From: Deltaproteobacteria bacterium
GTDB lineage: Bacteria; Myxococcota_A; UBA796; SXON01
Direction of reading: 5' to 3'
Assembly (NCBI GenBank): GCA_947484175.1
Contig: CANKOI010000048.1
Coordinates: 1 to 32,734 of the forward strand
DNA length: 32,734 nt
Made by a program: the position numbers and the translations under genes. The notes below the pieces were generated by a model that had not been told where the DNA came from, ran no database searches, and worked only from the letters and a program-made list of their open reading frames with translations. This document shows, one piece after another, positions 1-2,973 of this stretch. How positions within the stretch are numbered: the stretch's first letter is position 1; every line of letters starts with the position of its first letter.

Positions 1-1
1 T

Positions 2-880
2 CCCACGCCAGCGGAGTTCGGGCGCGCCCTCCAGATCGAGGCCAACCACCAGCGTTCGAACGCCGCCACCGCCCATGTGGGTATGACCGACGTGGGGCTC
101 CAGCGCGCGCTCAACGAAGACAACTGGGGCTGGGCCCGCCTCACCGAGGGCGTGGAGCTGTTCGTGGTGGCCGATGGCATGGGTGGCCACGACTGCGGTG
201 AGGTGGCCAGCCGCCTCGCGGTCGAAACCCTGATCCAGTCGGCCCGCGAGCGGGTGGACGTGTCGCCCCGCCCCTCCATCGACCAGCTCGAGAGCGCACT
301 CGACGAGGCGTTCCAGACGGCCAACAACACCATCAAGGGCAACGCCGAGGAGCGGGGCAACGATATGGGAACCACGATGGTCTGTGCCATGGTGGTCGAC
401 GATCAGGTGGCCCTGTGCGCGAACGTGGGCGACTCTCGCGGCTACCTCTACCGCAACGGTACGCTTCACCAGATCACCAAAGACCACTCGCTCGTGTGGC
501 GAATGGTCGATCAGGGGCGGCTCACCCAAGCGGAGGCGCGGAACCACCCCCACAGCAACATCCTGCTGCGCACGGTAGGCACCGAGAGGAACGTGGAGAT
601 CGACCTCTTCCGTGTGGAGCTGGAGTTGGGGGACAAGGTCGTCCTTTGTTCCGACGGTCTCTGGGGCGAAGTGGAAGACGGGGAGATGGAGTCGGTGATG
701 AACCAGCAGCCCGACGGAAGGATCGCCGCCCGCGAGCTGGTGCGCGCCGCCCACCTCGGCGGCGGGAAGGACAACATCACGGTGATCCTTGCGCAGGTGC
801 CAGCGCTCGCCGCCGCGGCGGTCGCCGACTCGCCGAGCGTCGCCCGGCTTCCGGCCGGCGCGCTGTCCACGTCGGGCTGA
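2..880 (+). CDS. PP2C-family serine/threonine protein phosphatase, 5' end cut by window edge
   Basis: This is a metal-dependent PPM/PP2C phosphatase that removes phosphate from Ser/Thr in the cytoplasm, usually opposing Hanks-type kinases. All family motifs are visible in order: an Asp-bearing NED near the start, the metal-binding DGMGGH, GTTM, GDSR, SDGLWGE and the C-terminal KDNIT. The frame is open to the window edge. The first in-frame ATG (position 77) falls inside the conserved first strand (VGMTDVG), so the true start lies outside the window. A short Ala/Pro-rich tail follows the catalytic domain. It ends 6 bases before the end of a convergent dual-specificity phosphatase gene, so two unrelated phosphatases face each other. 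No regulatory or membrane segment is visible in the part present. Confidence 0.95.
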   Translation, partial: PTPAEFGRALQIEANHQRSNAATAHVGMTDVGLQRALNEDNWGWARLTEGVELFVVADGMGGHDCGEVASRLAVETLIQSARERVDVSPRPSIDQLESALDEAFQTANNTIKGNAEERGNDMGTTMVCAMVVDDQVALCANVGDSRGYLYRNGTLHQITKDHSLVWRMVDQGRLTQAEARNHPHSNILLRTVGTERNVEIDLFRVELELGDKVVLCSDGLWGEVEDGEMESVMNQQPDGRIAARELVRAAHLGGGKDNITVILAQVPALAAAAVADSPSVARLPAGALSTSG

Positions 881-886
881 GGCCGC

Positions 887-1426
887 TCAACCGAAGCGCC
901 GAATCGCCTCGCGCTGCCCCTCCGTTTCGGGGCAACGAGACCCGCGCGCCGCGACGAGGGCGCGCAGCGCCGCATCGGCCTCCCAGCCCATCGAGCGGAG
1001 CGCGCAGCCGGCGATGAGGCCGCTGCGGCCGAGCCCCCCGGCGCAGTGAACCACGACCGTCCGCCCCTCGCGCACGGCGGCCACGACGGAGGCGACGATG
1101 GCGGTAAGCTCGGCAGGGGCCGGGATGCGCCCCCCCGACTGCATCGGGTGGGCGCGGAACGCGAGCCCCGCCGCTGCCGCAGCGGCCGGGAGCCCGGCCA
1201 CGCCGATGCCCGCCCTCTCGTGGACCGGCAGCAGGCACACGAGGTCCTCACAGCCAAGCTCTTGGAGCCGGAGGAGATCGGCGGGCATGTCGCGCTCCCA
1301 GCGCTCGCCGCCCCCCTTCCTCGTTTGGCAGCGCCCAGGCGCCATCGTGAGCCCGAGTCGACCAGGGGGCAGAATCGGCAGCCAGCCGACCTCGAGGGGG
1401 TGCGTTTCGGACGTGGCTACGGGCAC
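887..1426 (-). CDS. Dual-specificity (CDKN3-like) protein phosphatase
   Basis: A 179-residue cysteine-based phosphatase of the KAP/CDKN3 type. The signature VHCAGGLGRSG puts the catalytic Cys at about residue 128 and the Arg at 134. The N-terminal LPPGRLGLTMAPGR and the GGERWERDMPADLLRL segment also fit the bacterial CDKN3-like family. The start is taken as GTG because GGAGG lies four bases upstream and because it keeps the conserved N-terminal strand; a later ATG (TMAPG) would remove it. The GTG overlaps the last 10 bases of the upstream CARF gene, which indicates translational coupling. Oddity: where related enzymes have the general-acid Asp (P-I-x-D-G-G), this protein reads PMQSGG, so Ser sits at that place. 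Substrate unknown. Confidence 0.9.
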   Translation of the reverse strand: MPVATSETHPLEVGWLPILPPGRLGLTMAPGRCQTRKGGGERWERDMPADLLRLQELGCEDLVCLLPVHERAGIGVAGLPAAAAAAGLAFRAHPMQSGGRIPAPAELTAIVASVVAAVREGRTVVVHCAGGLGRSGLIAGCALRSMGWEADAALRALVAARGSRCPETEGQREAIRRFG

Positions 1427-2547
1427 AGTTCCTCCAAGAAGGGGGGCAGACTCAGACGGGAAGGGCTGCAGCCGATGCGCTCGCAGGCCTGCCCACGCTG
1501 GCGACGCTTCTGCGGCACCACGTGGTCCCGATGGGGATGCCCGCGGAGGGCGCACGCGAGGCGCAGGCGCAGGCGGGTCCGGATCGGGCCCAGCCGTTTG
1601 GCGCGCTCTTCGAAGTCCTGCGCGAACTCCCACGCATCGCTCAACTGCCCCGCCCGCCAGCCCCACGCCTTGCGGCACGCGTCGTGGACGGCCTGGACGA
1701 GAACGGTGTCGGTGACGTTCAGCCAGCCGTCGTCGTGGTGGCGGCGTCGGGCGACCGCCAGCGCCGAGAACCACAGCAGCTGGTCGTAGGAGAGCGGCAC
1801 GAGCACGGACCCGACTTGAATCGCCGCGGTGTCGCCCGCGAGGGTCACCGTGGGCTCAGGGCCCGACGCGATGGCCTCCTCGCCGGCCGCCAGCGCCGCG
1901 GCGAAGCTGGCGAGCGCCTCGGGGGCGAGCAGCCTCCGCAGCCTCGGCACGGGCACCGGCACGAGCGACACCTCTACGTCTCGCGCCAGCGCGCCTCCGC
2001 CCTCTGGCCCCGAGGGGGCGGCAAGCGTGGCCGGCGAGAGCTGCTCCGGAAAGTAGAAGCGGCTCCGGGGCTCGCGGGCCCACTTGAGCGACACCCGAAC
2101 GTCCACCAACCGATCCTGCGGCCGGGCGAGGAGTTGGAAGGCGACGACGGAGTGCGCCGCCAAGGTGCGCCGACTCCCGCCCACAAGCGCGAGGACGACG
2201 GGAGCCTCACTCTCGGCCTGCGCGCGAGTCACGGCGGCCCACAACGCCTCCACGAACGCGCTCGCGGCCCCCAGATCGGCGTCATCCTCGATCGGGGTCC
2301 CGTCGGGGAGCACGGCGTGGTGCAGTCGAAGGTCGGCGAGCGTGGGGTCGGCCGCCACGGCGCGGAGCTGGTCGAGCGGGCGGTCTCCGGCAAAAAACTC
2401 CTCGGTGAGCCAGTGGTTCGCCCGTTCGTGCAAGACCAGCTCGAGCGTGCGGGTGCGGAGCCGCTCGTGCCGCAGGAGCGCCCACACCAGCGCGACCAGC
2501 GGTGCGGGGTTCCCGCCGGGGGCCGCCACCACAGTGCACTCGTTCAC
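1417..2547 (-). CDS. CARF-domain protein of the CRISPR-associated NE0113 / ring-nuclease (TIGR02584-type) family
   Basis: A 376-residue protein. Residues 1-170 look like the Rossmann-like CARF domain of the NE0113 family: a first strand plus GGNP loop (residues 5-14), an acidic EDDAD segment (87-91), an LVGGSRRTLA loop (121-130) and a very characteristic ARPQDRLVDVRVS with a following FYFP (141-167). Family members bind or degrade cyclic oligoadenylates in type III CRISPR immunity. Residues about 190-300 are helical, and the stretch around VPLSYDQLLWFSALA resembles the winged-helix part seen in the family. The basic tail is unassigned. The start is GTG because it overlaps the upstream stop as GTGA. 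No cas1, cas10 or array is visible nearby. The family loops GxSP and GGRKT read GGNP and GGSRRT here, so activity may be altered. Function in this operon is inference. Confidence 0.8.
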   Translation of the reverse strand: MNECTVVAAPGGNPAPLVALVWALLRHERLRTRTLELVLHERANHWLTEEFFAGDRPLDQLRAVAADPTLADLRLHHAVLPDGTPIEDDADLGAASAFVEALWAAVTRAQAESEAPVVLALVGGSRRTLAAHSVVAFQLLARPQDRLVDVRVSLKWAREPRSRFYFPEQLSPATLAAPSGPEGGGALARDVEVSLVPVPVPRLRRLLAPEALASFAAALAAGEEAIASGPEPTVTLAGDTAAIQVGSVLVPLSYDQLLWFSALAVARRRHHDDGWLNVTDTVLVQAVHDACRKAWGWRAGQLSDAWEFAQDFEERAKRLGPIRTRLRLRLACALRGHPHRDHVVPQKRRQRGQACERIGCSPSRLSLPPFLEELCP

Positions 2548-2885
2548 CGGAGGCTCGCGATGGACTGGAGCTTGTGCAGCGCGCTCCACACTTCGCTGTA
2601 CACATGGGCCCGCTCGTACCCCTGCCGCTTGGCCACCTCGGTCTTGAAGTTGGCGTAGTCGATGTCCAACGCCATCCGGGAGAGCGCCGAGGCCCAGTCT
2701 TCGTGCGAGCAGCGGGCTCGGTAGGGGTAGTCGCTGCCGCCCCCCGCCTGCGTGGCCGAGAGACGGGGAAGGTACTGCGTGCGCAGTGCGTCAAGGTCGC
2801 CGGCCACCCGTGCGCGCACGGTGAGGCCGGCGTCGCCTTGTTTGCGGACAGCGGAGAAGAAGCCGATCGGAGTGAGCAACCACAT
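2544..2885 (-). CDS. Small conserved protein of unknown function, first gene of the CARF-phosphatase unit
   Basis: A 113-residue soluble protein starting at ATG, with GAGGGA just upstream as a ribosome-binding site. It opens with WLLTPIGFFSAVRKQGD, then a RARVAGDLDALR helix, YPYRAR, SHEDWASALSRMALDIDY and NFKTEVAKRQGYERAHVYSE. From memory, this pattern matches a compact hypothetical family found widely in bacteria, but I cannot name a Pfam entry. There is no signal peptide, membrane segment or obvious catalytic motif; conserved-looking His, Tyr and Asp residues cluster in the second half. Its stop overlaps the GTG of the CARF gene by four bases, so the two are almost certainly made together. 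That linkage suggests it acts as a partner, sensor or toxin-like component, which is speculation. Confidence 0.85.
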   Translation of the reverse strand: MWLLTPIGFFSAVRKQGDAGLTVRARVAGDLDALRTQYLPRLSATQAGGGSDYPYRARCSHEDWASALSRMALDIDYANFKTEVAKRQGYERAHVYSEVWSALHKLQSIASLR

Positions 2886-2973
2886 GATTCCCTCGGGGTG
2901 ACAACCGAAGGGTATCCACCGACGACGGCGGCGGCAGTTGGCGCAAAATTACGCAAAGGCGCGGGGTAGCGCG
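2886..2973. other. 88-base gap with an AT-rich patch, possible boundary between two minus-strand units
   Basis: This gap separates the sulfatase-like gene from the CARF-containing unit, all on the minus strand. It holds an AT-rich patch near 2945-2957 (aaaattacgcaaa), unusual in this GC-rich region. On the minus strand this patch comes just after a weak GCGC-loop-GCGC pairing and could serve as a terminator or part of a promoter. I see no convincing -35/-10 pair. It is the only gap longer than 10 bases among the six minus-strand genes, which favours separate transcription of the CARF unit. Confidence 0.3.

What the first reader, a model, noticed from the sequence alone, without database searches (positions are those of the whole stretch)
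887..2885. CRISPR-type CARF protein in a coupled operon with a dual-specificity phosphatase and a small conserved protein
Three minus-strand genes overlap each other (GTGA overlap between the first two, 10-base overlap between the last two), so they are made as a unit. The middle gene looks like an NE0113-family CARF/ring-nuclease protein, normally an accessory of type III CRISPR systems that handles cyclic oligoadenylate. Yet no array, cas10, cas1 or Csm/Cmr gene is within about 30 kb on the side visible here. A phosphatase that acts on phosphoproteins or phosphorylated small molecules, joined to a second-messenger binding domain and a small unknown protein, would be a new signalling or defence arrangement. 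The defence idea is inference.
Basis: partly seen in the sequence, partly recalled or inferred. Interest (0 to 1): 0.72.

Follow-up and report, generated by a model that had tools for sequence, protein, structure and literature searches.

The report
CRISPR-free CARF gene with ADP-ribose enzymes
Three overlapping bacterial genes include a CARF sensor protein whose branch seems to have left CRISPR behind and now sits beside phosphatases and ADP-ribose-handling enzymes, which suggests that this sensor type may read another class of nucleotide signal.

Summary
In detail: three overlapping minus-strand genes at 887-2885 encode a 113-aa protein, a CARF protein of the NE0113/CARF5 kind and a CDKN3-type phosphatase. 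It does not look like a CRISPR accessory. The CARF belongs to a small branch (9 members found) that splits from CRISPR-type NE0113 proteins at 100/100 and has Arg in 9 of 9 where 8 of 8 others have Lys. Cas10 was not found in the window's draft genome. In 7 of 9 loci a phosphatase and/or ADP-ribosylglycohydrolase gene lies directly downstream, of exchangeable kinds; two loci have the small protein fused to a Nudix domain, one a Thoeris-like SIR2 gene. Relatives of the window's phosphatase are often fused to or beside ADP-ribosylglycohydrolase. Best reading: a CARF-sensor variant of the published ADP-ribosylglycohydrolase/phosphatase conflict systems, CARF replacing the WYL or Nudix regulator. 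Against it: the window's genome has no ADP-ribosylglycohydrolase, the winged helix is unproven, the phosphatase lacks a conserved Asp. Ligand and function are untested. The exact trio was found only here.

The parts
2544..2885 (-). Small protein P0003 (113 aa), first gene; family MW..T..GFFS.V ... DY..R ... DY.NFK, alone here, fused to a Nudix domain in some relatives
   Evidence: 11 invariant positions over 67 sequences; AlphaFold2 pLDDT 96.3; no Pfam, NCBIfam, PADLOC or PHROGs match
2544..2547 (-). GTGA overlap: stop of the small protein and GTG start of the CARF gene
   Evidence: Sequence read
1417..2547 (-). CARF protein of the NE0113/CARF5 kind, 376 aa
   Evidence: PF09623 over cut-off, CARF5 2.4e-15, fold matches to Cdn1, Card1, Csm6, Sso2081
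2167..2169 (-). Codon of Arg127 in the motif VGGSRRT, where CRISPR-type NE0113 proteins have Lys (GGRKT)
   Evidence: Arg in 9 of 9 branch members, Lys in 8 of 8 other NE0113 relatives, read from an alignment whose rows were not chosen by the motif
1420..1860 (-). C-terminal domain of the CARF protein (about residues 230-376); secondary structure in the order of an OmpR-type winged helix
   Evidence: DSSP of the model: three strands, helix, helix, helix, beta hairpin; sequence support below significance
1417..1426 (-). 10-base overlap of CARF stop and phosphatase GTG start
   Evidence: Sequence read
887..1426 (-). CDKN3-type dual-specificity phosphatase (rhodanese-phosphatase superfamily), 179 aa
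   Evidence: PF05706 1.4e-8; best solved relative CDKN3 (1fpz) 1e-7
1022..1048 (-). Intact phosphatase P-loop HCAGGLGRS (HCx5RS)
1136..1138 (-). Ser codon (TCG) where all 29 compared homologues have Asp (by recall the general acid of such enzymes)
2886..2973 (-). 88-base gap between the upstream sulfatase gene and the trio; candidate promoter/operator, no sigma-70-type consensus found

Best explanation
The trio is a CRISPR-independent CARF cassette of the ADP-ribose/nucleotide-processing kind. The CARF protein, probably a ligand-sensing transcription regulator with a C-terminal winged helix, detects a small nucleotide made or released during infection or NAD-related stress, most likely an ADP-ribose-type or phosphorylated-nucleotide product, and controls its own operon. 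The partner genes (phosphatase here; metallophosphatase, ADP-ribosylglycohydrolase and Nudix in relatives) break down ADP-ribose adducts or the signal itself. CARF would then do the sensing that WYL or Nudix regulators do in the published ADP-ribosylglycohydrolase/rhodanese-phosphatase systems. Shown: gene identities, overlaps, recurrence with exchanged processing enzymes, separate CARF branch, Lys-to-Arg difference, no Cas10 match in 7 of 9 draft genomes. Inferred: DNA binding, ligand, regulation, role in phage conflict.
For: CARF branch: 9 members (window, G127, G141, G218, G326, G241, G269, L049, L050) split from 5 CRISPR-type NE0113 at 100/100. In the phylum sample 13 of 377 genomes match; 7 branch members score E<1e-90 and the next match is 2.5e-17. 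Arg in 9 of 9 against Lys in 8 of 8. Cas10 palm: no match in 7 of the 9 branch genomes, over cut-off in 7 of the 8 Lys-type genomes. Directly downstream, same strand: DSP (window, -10 bases), metallophosphatase (G141 -4, G241 83, L049 64), ADP-ribosylglycohydrolase-metallophosphatase fusion (G326 42, G269 71), ADP-ribosylglycohydrolase (L050, 29) = 7 of 9. Upstream: small protein-Nudix fusion in G141 and G218, ThsA-like SIR2 overlapping the CARF gene in L049. [quoted passage not shown] plasmids show WYL regulator + DSP-ADP-ribosylglycohydrolase fusion + HEPN + PD-(D/E)XK and ADP-ribosylglycohydrolase overlapping CDKN3. PMC9503650 section 3.8 (read whole) predicts such systems with WYL or Nudix regulators.
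Against: The window's genome as held has no ADP-ribosylglycohydrolase (nor have G218, G127), so the central enzyme of those systems is missing here. G127 has the CARF with no partner beside it, and in G218 the CARF frame ends after 208 residues with no phosphatase match behind. 20 of the 29 phosphatase loci show no ADP-ribosylglycohydrolase in the stretch held. The winged helix is unproven: hhalign to OmpR-type domains of the same genome gives 0.5%, Pfam finds none, and in the PDB profile searches MtrA (E 0.13) and PrrA (0.37, 0.81) are not significant and unrelated proteins rank among them. The window phosphatase lacks the conserved Asp and may not be active. G127 and G241 have cas1; G241 has a Cas10-like palm just under cut-off (26.3 against 27 bits) and G326 one match over it (27.8 bits) that I read as a GGDEF protein, so cyclic oligoadenylate in such cells is not excluded. 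Weak Cas4 matches lie near two branch members (L050 4.4e-4, L049 8.1e-3). Eight of the nine loci are from records titled MAG, the window's from an unnamed draft.
Confidence: 0.5

Rival explanations
1. A stray type III CRISPR accessory: a ring nuclease or cyclic-oligoadenylate-responsive regulator cut off from its Cas10 by assembly breaks or recent loss.
For: PF09623 and CARF5 matches; model resembles Cdn1, Card1, Csm6 and Sso2081; cas1 in G127 and G241, a sub-cut-off Cas10-like palm in G241; weak Cas4-model matches in L050 and L049; genomes are incomplete; one Lys-type relative, G379, also shows no Cas10.
Against: Separate branch at 100/100, Arg for Lys in 9 of 9; no Cas10 match in 7 of 9 branch genomes against matches over cut-off in 7 of 8 Lys-type genomes; the two matches in G326 sit in proteins that read as GGDEF cyclases (my reading). 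No Cas10, Cas1, Csm or Cmr gene was recognised beside the 9 loci, but most neighbours outside the window were read by eye, not by profile.
Confidence: 0.15
2. A dinucleoside-polyphosphate (Ap4A-like) or RNA-cap signalling cassette: metallophosphatase and Nudix degrade NpnN or NpnN caps and CARF senses them.
For: The fused Nudix is nearest to Ndx1 and AP4A hydrolase in PDB (2.8e-13, 1.2e-12); four of the five metallophosphatase proteins match the ApaH model weakly.
Against: ApaH scores are 26-31 bits against a cut-off of 176 and the nearest solved relative of the one tested is another phosphatase, Rhizobiales-like phosphatase 2; it does not explain ADP-ribosylglycohydrolase in 3 of 9 loci or a CDKN3-type phosphatase here.
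Confidence: 0.12
3. An RNA-end repair or sensing cassette: CARF senses RNA with 2',3'-cyclic phosphate ends (as proposed for RtcR-type regulators), and SIR2, phosphatase, Nudix and ADP-ribosylglycohydrolase process 2'-phosphate and ADP-ribose phosphate.
For: PMC9503650 (passages) links CARF and WYL regulators to cyclic-phosphate RNA and sirtuin, calcineurin-like and Nudix genes to clean-up of ADP-ribose phosphate; L049 has SIR2.
Against: No ligase, RtcA/B, KptA or 2H gene was noticed next to the CARF loci by eye; none was searched for by profile.
Confidence: 0.13
4. Unrelated neighbours: a relic CARF in a loose gene cluster with no joint function.
For: The exact trio occurs once; G127 has a lone CARF, G218 a shortened one; distribution is patchy (7 of 63 genomes of the order); the phosphatase lost a conserved Asp.
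Against: Overlapping starts and stops at both junctions, small protein/CARF adjacency in 3 loci (window, G141, G218), processing enzymes directly downstream in 7 of 9, co-occurrence of small protein and CARF in 4 of 7 branch genomes against 9 of 370 others (Fisher p 3e-5, not corrected for kinship).
Confidence: 0.1

Closest known systems
NE0113/CARF5 proteins of type III CRISPR loci (PF09623, TIGR02584)
   Same: CARF fold, length, F[FY].P and ARP..D motifs, similar C-terminal region
   Different: No CRISPR context found here, Arg for Lys in the GGRKT motif, TIGR02584 equivalog cut-off not reached, separate branch in the tree
ADP-ribosylglycohydrolase (ARG)/rhodanese-phosphatase systems predicted in PMC9503650 section 3.8
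   Same: CDKN3-type phosphatase, exchange with calcineurin-like phosphatases, ADP-ribosylglycohydrolase and Nudix in relatives, variable core
   Different: CARF instead of a WYL or Nudix-HTH regulator; no ADP-ribosylglycohydrolase in the window's genome; I did not recognise the small protein in that section
Csa3-type CARF-HTH regulators (PMC9704534, passages)
   Same: CARF domain followed by a (here only predicted) DNA-binding domain
   Different: Csa3 is often found in type I-A CRISPR systems and responds to cA4; the C-terminal domain here rests on fold order alone
Thoeris ThsA (SIR2 part)
   Same: L049 carries a SIR2 gene matching PADLOC ThsA at 1.2e-36 that overlaps the CARF gene
   Different: Only 1 of 9 loci; no TIR gene (ThsB) was noticed there by eye; the window trio has no SIR2

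Membership tests
NE0113/CARF5 CARF protein | Profile match | tested here: met
   PF09623 28.7 bits over cut-off 23; PADLOC CARF5 2.4e-15
NE0113/CARF5 CARF protein | TIGR02584 equivalog cut-off (CRISPR-associated ring nuclease) | tested here: not met
   37.3 against 80.65 bits
NE0113/CARF5 CARF protein | CARF fold | tested here: met
   Foldseek: Cdn1 7.6e-4; Sso2081 probability 1.00, TM 0.49 by target length, E 2.9e-3; Card1 probability 0.95
Type III CRISPR accessory | Cas10 in the same genome | tested here: not met
   0 matches in G000 and in 7 of 9 branch genomes; drafts, so weak singly
Type III CRISPR accessory | Conserved Lys of GGRKT | tested here: not met
   Arg in 9 of 9; Lys in 8 of 8 other NE0113 relatives
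Type III CRISPR accessory | Binding or cleavage of cyclic oligoadenylate | not testable with these tools
   Needs protein
ARG/rhodanese-phosphatase system | ADP-ribosylglycohydrolase gene in the cassette | tested here: not met
   None in the window's genome; present in 3 of 9 related loci
ARG/rhodanese-phosphatase system | Phosphatase of the rhodanese-phosphatase type | tested here: met
   CDKN3 over cut-off, Tc-R-P over cut-off, PTP-SAK and DSPc under cut-off; homologues fused to ARG or ARPP-1
ARG/rhodanese-phosphatase system | WYL or Nudix-HTH regulator | tested here: not met
   CARF in that place; neither in the trio
ARG/rhodanese-phosphatase system | Peptide-binding chaperone (TY-Chap, vWA, SseB) | tested here: inconclusive
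   The small protein has no Pfam or significant PDB fold match
CDKN3-type dual-specificity phosphatase | HCx5R P-loop | tested here: met
   HCAGGLGRS
CDKN3-type dual-specificity phosphatase | Conserved Asp of PI.D | tested here: not met
   Ser in the window, Asp in 29 of 29 homologues
CARF-winged-helix regulator | C-terminal DNA-binding domain | tested here: inconclusive
   Fold order fits; sequence support not significant
Thoeris | ThsA SIR2 plus TIR ThsB | tested here: not met
   Neither in the trio; SIR2 only in L049

The most novel reading that the evidence does not exclude
A branch of CARF proteins has switched ligand: instead of cyclic oligoadenylate from Cas10 it senses an NAD-derived signal (ADP-ribose, cyclic ADP-ribose or an ADP-ribose phosphate), and the operon encodes both that sensor and the enzymes that erase the signal. 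The window's phosphatase, lacking its conserved Asp, may act as a ligand trap rather than an enzyme.
Probability: 0.3. Interest if true: 0.82.

Novelty: new variant of a known kind. Interest (0 to 1): 0.6.

Why it matters
CARF domains are the usual sensors of cyclic oligoadenylate in type III CRISPR. A CARF branch that seems to live without Cas10 beside ADP-ribose-processing enzymes makes the old question of what CARF domains outside CRISPR bind directly testable with a short list of ligands, and would link two large fields of phage defence (CRISPR second messengers and NAD/ADP-ribose signalling).

Tried and rejected
Led nowhere: viral-contig scan for CARF relatives (18 pattern matches, none confirmed); PDB sequence search with the CARF alignment (0 hits) and with a CRISPR-type relative (0); PDB fold search with the small protein (0 at E<=0.001) and BFVD (two proteins without a name in the table); OmpR-domain comparison by hhalign (0.5%); Pfam on the C-terminal domain (one odd match, Fpg-like_C 0.0057, in 1 of 10); promoter and terminator scan (no promoter, 2 terminator-like sites against 1.3 expected); Rfam (0); paper searches for a CARF phosphatase or CARF + ADP-ribosylglycohydrolase system: PMC9503650 is the only held paper with both 'CARF' and 'ADP-ribosylglycohydrolase'. 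Two papers I wanted (DOIs 10.1093/nargab/lqad029 and 10.1093/nar/gkaa635) are not held, so prior mention there cannot be excluded.

Considered and rejected: that the small protein marks a phage-borne system. It is common in phage contigs (77 of 211 pattern-matching viral stretches confirmed) but its neighbours there vary (73 of 77 called) and only 6 of 77 viral loci have a similar Nudix in the stretch held and 1 an ADP-ribosylglycohydrolase. Rejected too: that the Cas10-model matches in G326 mean CRISPR; both proteins read as GGDEF cyclases, and the same model rings in E. coli among the controls. Dropped before counting: the low-scoring G341 match, whose best frame is a 149-aa stretch at E 0.0039 without the motif.

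Cas10 in G307 and G037 was then tested. The window's 28 other genes were run against PADLOC.
Full report
WHAT IS THERE. On the minus strand three genes overlap: a 113-aa protein (2885-2544), a CARF protein (2547-1417) and a dual-specificity phosphatase (1426-887); the junctions are GTGA and a 10-base overlap. An 88-base gap separates the first gene from an upstream sulfatase gene; a PP2C gene converges from the other side. Of the 28 other called genes, ten were read by Pfam and are of ordinary kinds: PP2C, sulfatase, matrixin-PKD, outer-membrane receptor, polyA polymerase head, XPB-like helicase, 3'-5' exonuclease-HRDC, GAF, bPH and aminotransferase. Against PADLOC all 28 give matches at 1e-5 to five models: PDC-M21C (the PP2C gene, 4.7e-14), three PbeA models and type IV DinG (which gene is not told; probably the helicase). 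No whole defence system is recognised. The window is all of contig C48 of a 4.37-Mb, 94.7%-complete draft genome.

THE CARF PROTEIN. It matches PF09623 (NE0113) over the curated cut-off and TIGR02584 well under its cut-off; PADLOC calls it CARF5. The AlphaFold2 model (pLDDT 87.5, 11 sequences) has CARF structures as best PDB matches: Cdn1 (7.6e-4), Card1, Csm6 and ring nuclease Sso2081 (2.9e-3, probability 1.00). The C-terminal 150 residues show strands, helix, helix, helix and a beta hairpin, the order of an OmpR-type winged helix. This rests on fold order alone: PDB profile hits to MtrA (0.13) and PrrA (0.37, 0.81) are not significant and unrelated proteins rank among them, hhalign against five OmpR-type domains of the same genome gives 0.5%, and Pfam finds none. 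PMC4012209 (passages) had predicted that NE0113 proteins regulate transcription.

A BRANCH OUTSIDE CRISPR. Searching 377 genomes of the phylum with the 9-member alignment gave 13 with a match: 7 at E<1e-90, then a gap to 2.5e-17. Two more members came from the single scan of genome contigs, which returned 10 loci: 6 repeat genomes already found, 2 are new branch members (L049, L050) and 2 are of the CRISPR type (L054, L055). The record titles of these scans name Myxococcota, Myxococcaceae, Myxococcales, delta proteobacterium or uncultured proteobacterium, and once Klebsiella, which looks mislabelled; kinship of L049 and L050 to the window is not told by the tools. A tree of the 9 with 5 Lys-type relatives splits them at 100/100; the placing of G241 and G269 inside is unsure, their end branches being long. 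In an alignment whose rows were chosen by profile score, the column of Arg127 is Arg in 9 of 9 branch members and Lys in 8 of 8 others (G046, G023, G018, G379, G380, G299, G307, G037). By recall, this Lys belongs to the ligand pocket of cyclic-oligoadenylate CARFs; no call tested that.

CAS GENES. Cas10 palm (18 genomes): of the 9 branch genomes 7 have no match; G326 has two (one over cut-off, 27.8 bits) in proteins that read as GGDEF; G241 has one Cas10-like protein of 705 aa just under cut-off. Of the 8 Lys-type genomes 7 have matches over cut-off; G379 has none. G341 has none. Cas1 (14 genomes): absent in the window's genome, present in G127 and G241 of the branch and in 4 of the 5 Lys-type genomes tested (G046, G018, G379, G380; not G023). 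Weak Cas4-model matches occur near the CARF of L050 (4.4e-4) and in a large protein of L049 (8.1e-3). Absence in draft genomes is weak evidence singly; the pattern over nine is better.

PARTNERS OF THE CARF. Directly downstream on the same strand: window, DSP (-10 bases); G141, metallophosphatase (-4); G326, ADP-ribosylglycohydrolase-metallophosphatase fusion (42); G241, metallophosphatase (83); G269, the same kind of fusion (71); L049, metallophosphatase (64); L050, ADP-ribosylglycohydrolase, cut by the contig end (29). G127 has none; in G218 the CARF frame stops after 208 residues and no partner was found behind it. So 7 of 9. Upstream: the small protein alone (window), small protein-Nudix fusions (G141, G218), and in L049 a SIR2 protein that matches ThsA of Thoeris at 1.2e-36 and overlaps the CARF gene; L049 also carries genes matching DpdJ/MkoA and PDC-M26A defence models. 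ADP-ribosylglycohydrolase occurs in 6 of the 9 branch genomes, in 3 of them at the CARF locus; not in the window's genome, G218 or G127.

THE PHOSPHATASE. CDKN3 and Tc-R-P models match over cut-off, DSPc and PTP-SAK under. It is common in the phylum (95 of 282 genomes). Of the 29 best-scoring non-window loci which that call delivered, 9 have an ADP-ribosylglycohydrolase fused or within about 1.5 kb and 20 show none in the stretch held. Four were read by Pfam: fusions to ADP-ribosylglycohydrolase (L160, L170), to ARPP-1 (L157) and to TCAD9 (L163). The three plasmid matches are: WYL regulator, DSP-ADP-ribosylglycohydrolase fusion, HEPN, PD-(D/E)XK; ADP-ribosylglycohydrolase overlapping a CDKN3 gene; metallophosphoesterase, ATP-binding protein, phosphatase. 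This fits the rhodanese-phosphatase partner described in PMC9503650 section 3.8 (read whole). The window's copy keeps the HCx5R loop but has Ser where all 29 homologues have Asp; by recall that Asp is the general acid of such enzymes, so activity may be low or lost.

THE SMALL PROTEIN. Found in 13 of 377 phylum genomes; in 8 of those 13 a Nudix domain of one kind is fused to it (5) or is the overlapping next gene (3). It is widespread in phage contigs: 77 of 211 pattern-matching viral stretches were confirmed. Eleven positions are invariant over 67 sequences, several basic (R24, R26, R56, K81), which suggests a phosphate-bearing ligand (inference). The model is very confident (96.3) and no solved structure matches significantly. 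PHROGs had no match for the four unfused members tried; the one fusion tried matched Nudix families over its Nudix part. Co-occurrence with the CARF branch is 4 of 7 genomes against 9 of 370 (Fisher p 3e-5, uncorrected for kinship).

MECHANISM. Most likely the CARF protein is a sensor-regulator of its own operon and the partners process ADP-ribose adducts or an ADP-ribose-type signal. Two lines point that way: where a downstream enzyme is present (7 of 9) it is exchanged freely but belongs to the phosphatase/ADP-ribosylglycohydrolase set of the published systems, and no WYL or Nudix-HTH regulator was recognised beside these CARF genes, so CARF may stand in its place. The ligand, DNA binding and any phage link are inference. 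Rivals (stray CRISPR accessory, Ap4A or cap signalling, RNA-end sensing, chance) are weighed above.

NOVELTY. PMC9503650 is the only held paper with both 'CARF' and 'ADP-ribosylglycohydrolase'; its section 3.8 does not name CARF as a regulator, and its CARF passage concerns RNA ends. PMC9704534, PMC11229360 and PMC12669027 were seen in passages only and gave nothing on this arrangement. The 2020 CARF classification and the 2023 rhodanese-phosphatase paper are not held, so a mention there remains possible. Filed as a new variant of a known kind.

Noticed in passing
77 IMG/VR loci L064-L140; window 2544-2885: The small protein family (MW..T..GFFS.V, DY.NFK) is widespread in phage contigs, has a very confident model without a significant PDB match, and no family name in the libraries tried.
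   Followed up: partly
L049 8457-9992: SIR2 protein like ThsA of Thoeris overlapping a CARF gene, followed by a metallophosphatase, near DpdJ/MkoA-like and PDC-M26A-like genes: a possible CARF-SIR2 defence unit.
   Followed up: partly
L147 262-2376 (genome G241): A 705-aa Cas10-like palm protein (26.3 bits, cut-off 27) with a zinc-finger-like stretch and GGDD, on another contig than the CARF gene; possible CRISPR-like polymerase.
   Followed up: no
L161, L163, L165, L175-L181: The same phosphatase type sits at the end of long proteins; L163 was read as TCAD9 (ternary complex associated domain 9) plus phosphatase, the others look alike by eye.
   Followed up: partly
L048 (CAMBIK010000185.1): A 7.7-kb metagenome contig labelled Klebsiella pneumoniae has the length of the G218 contig (same genus as the window) and the same CARF match; the organism label looks wrong.
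   Followed up: no
window 1136-1138: The window's phosphatase has Ser at a position that is Asp in all 29 homologues compared.
   Followed up: yes
L028 3579-4205: The CARF frame of G218 ends after 208 residues, leaving the CARF domain without the C-terminal domain; real or an assembly error.
   Followed up: no
window 1-880: The convergent PP2C gene matches the PADLOC candidate model PDC-M21C (4.7e-14); PP2C is a common enzyme type, so this may mean nothing.
   Followed up: no
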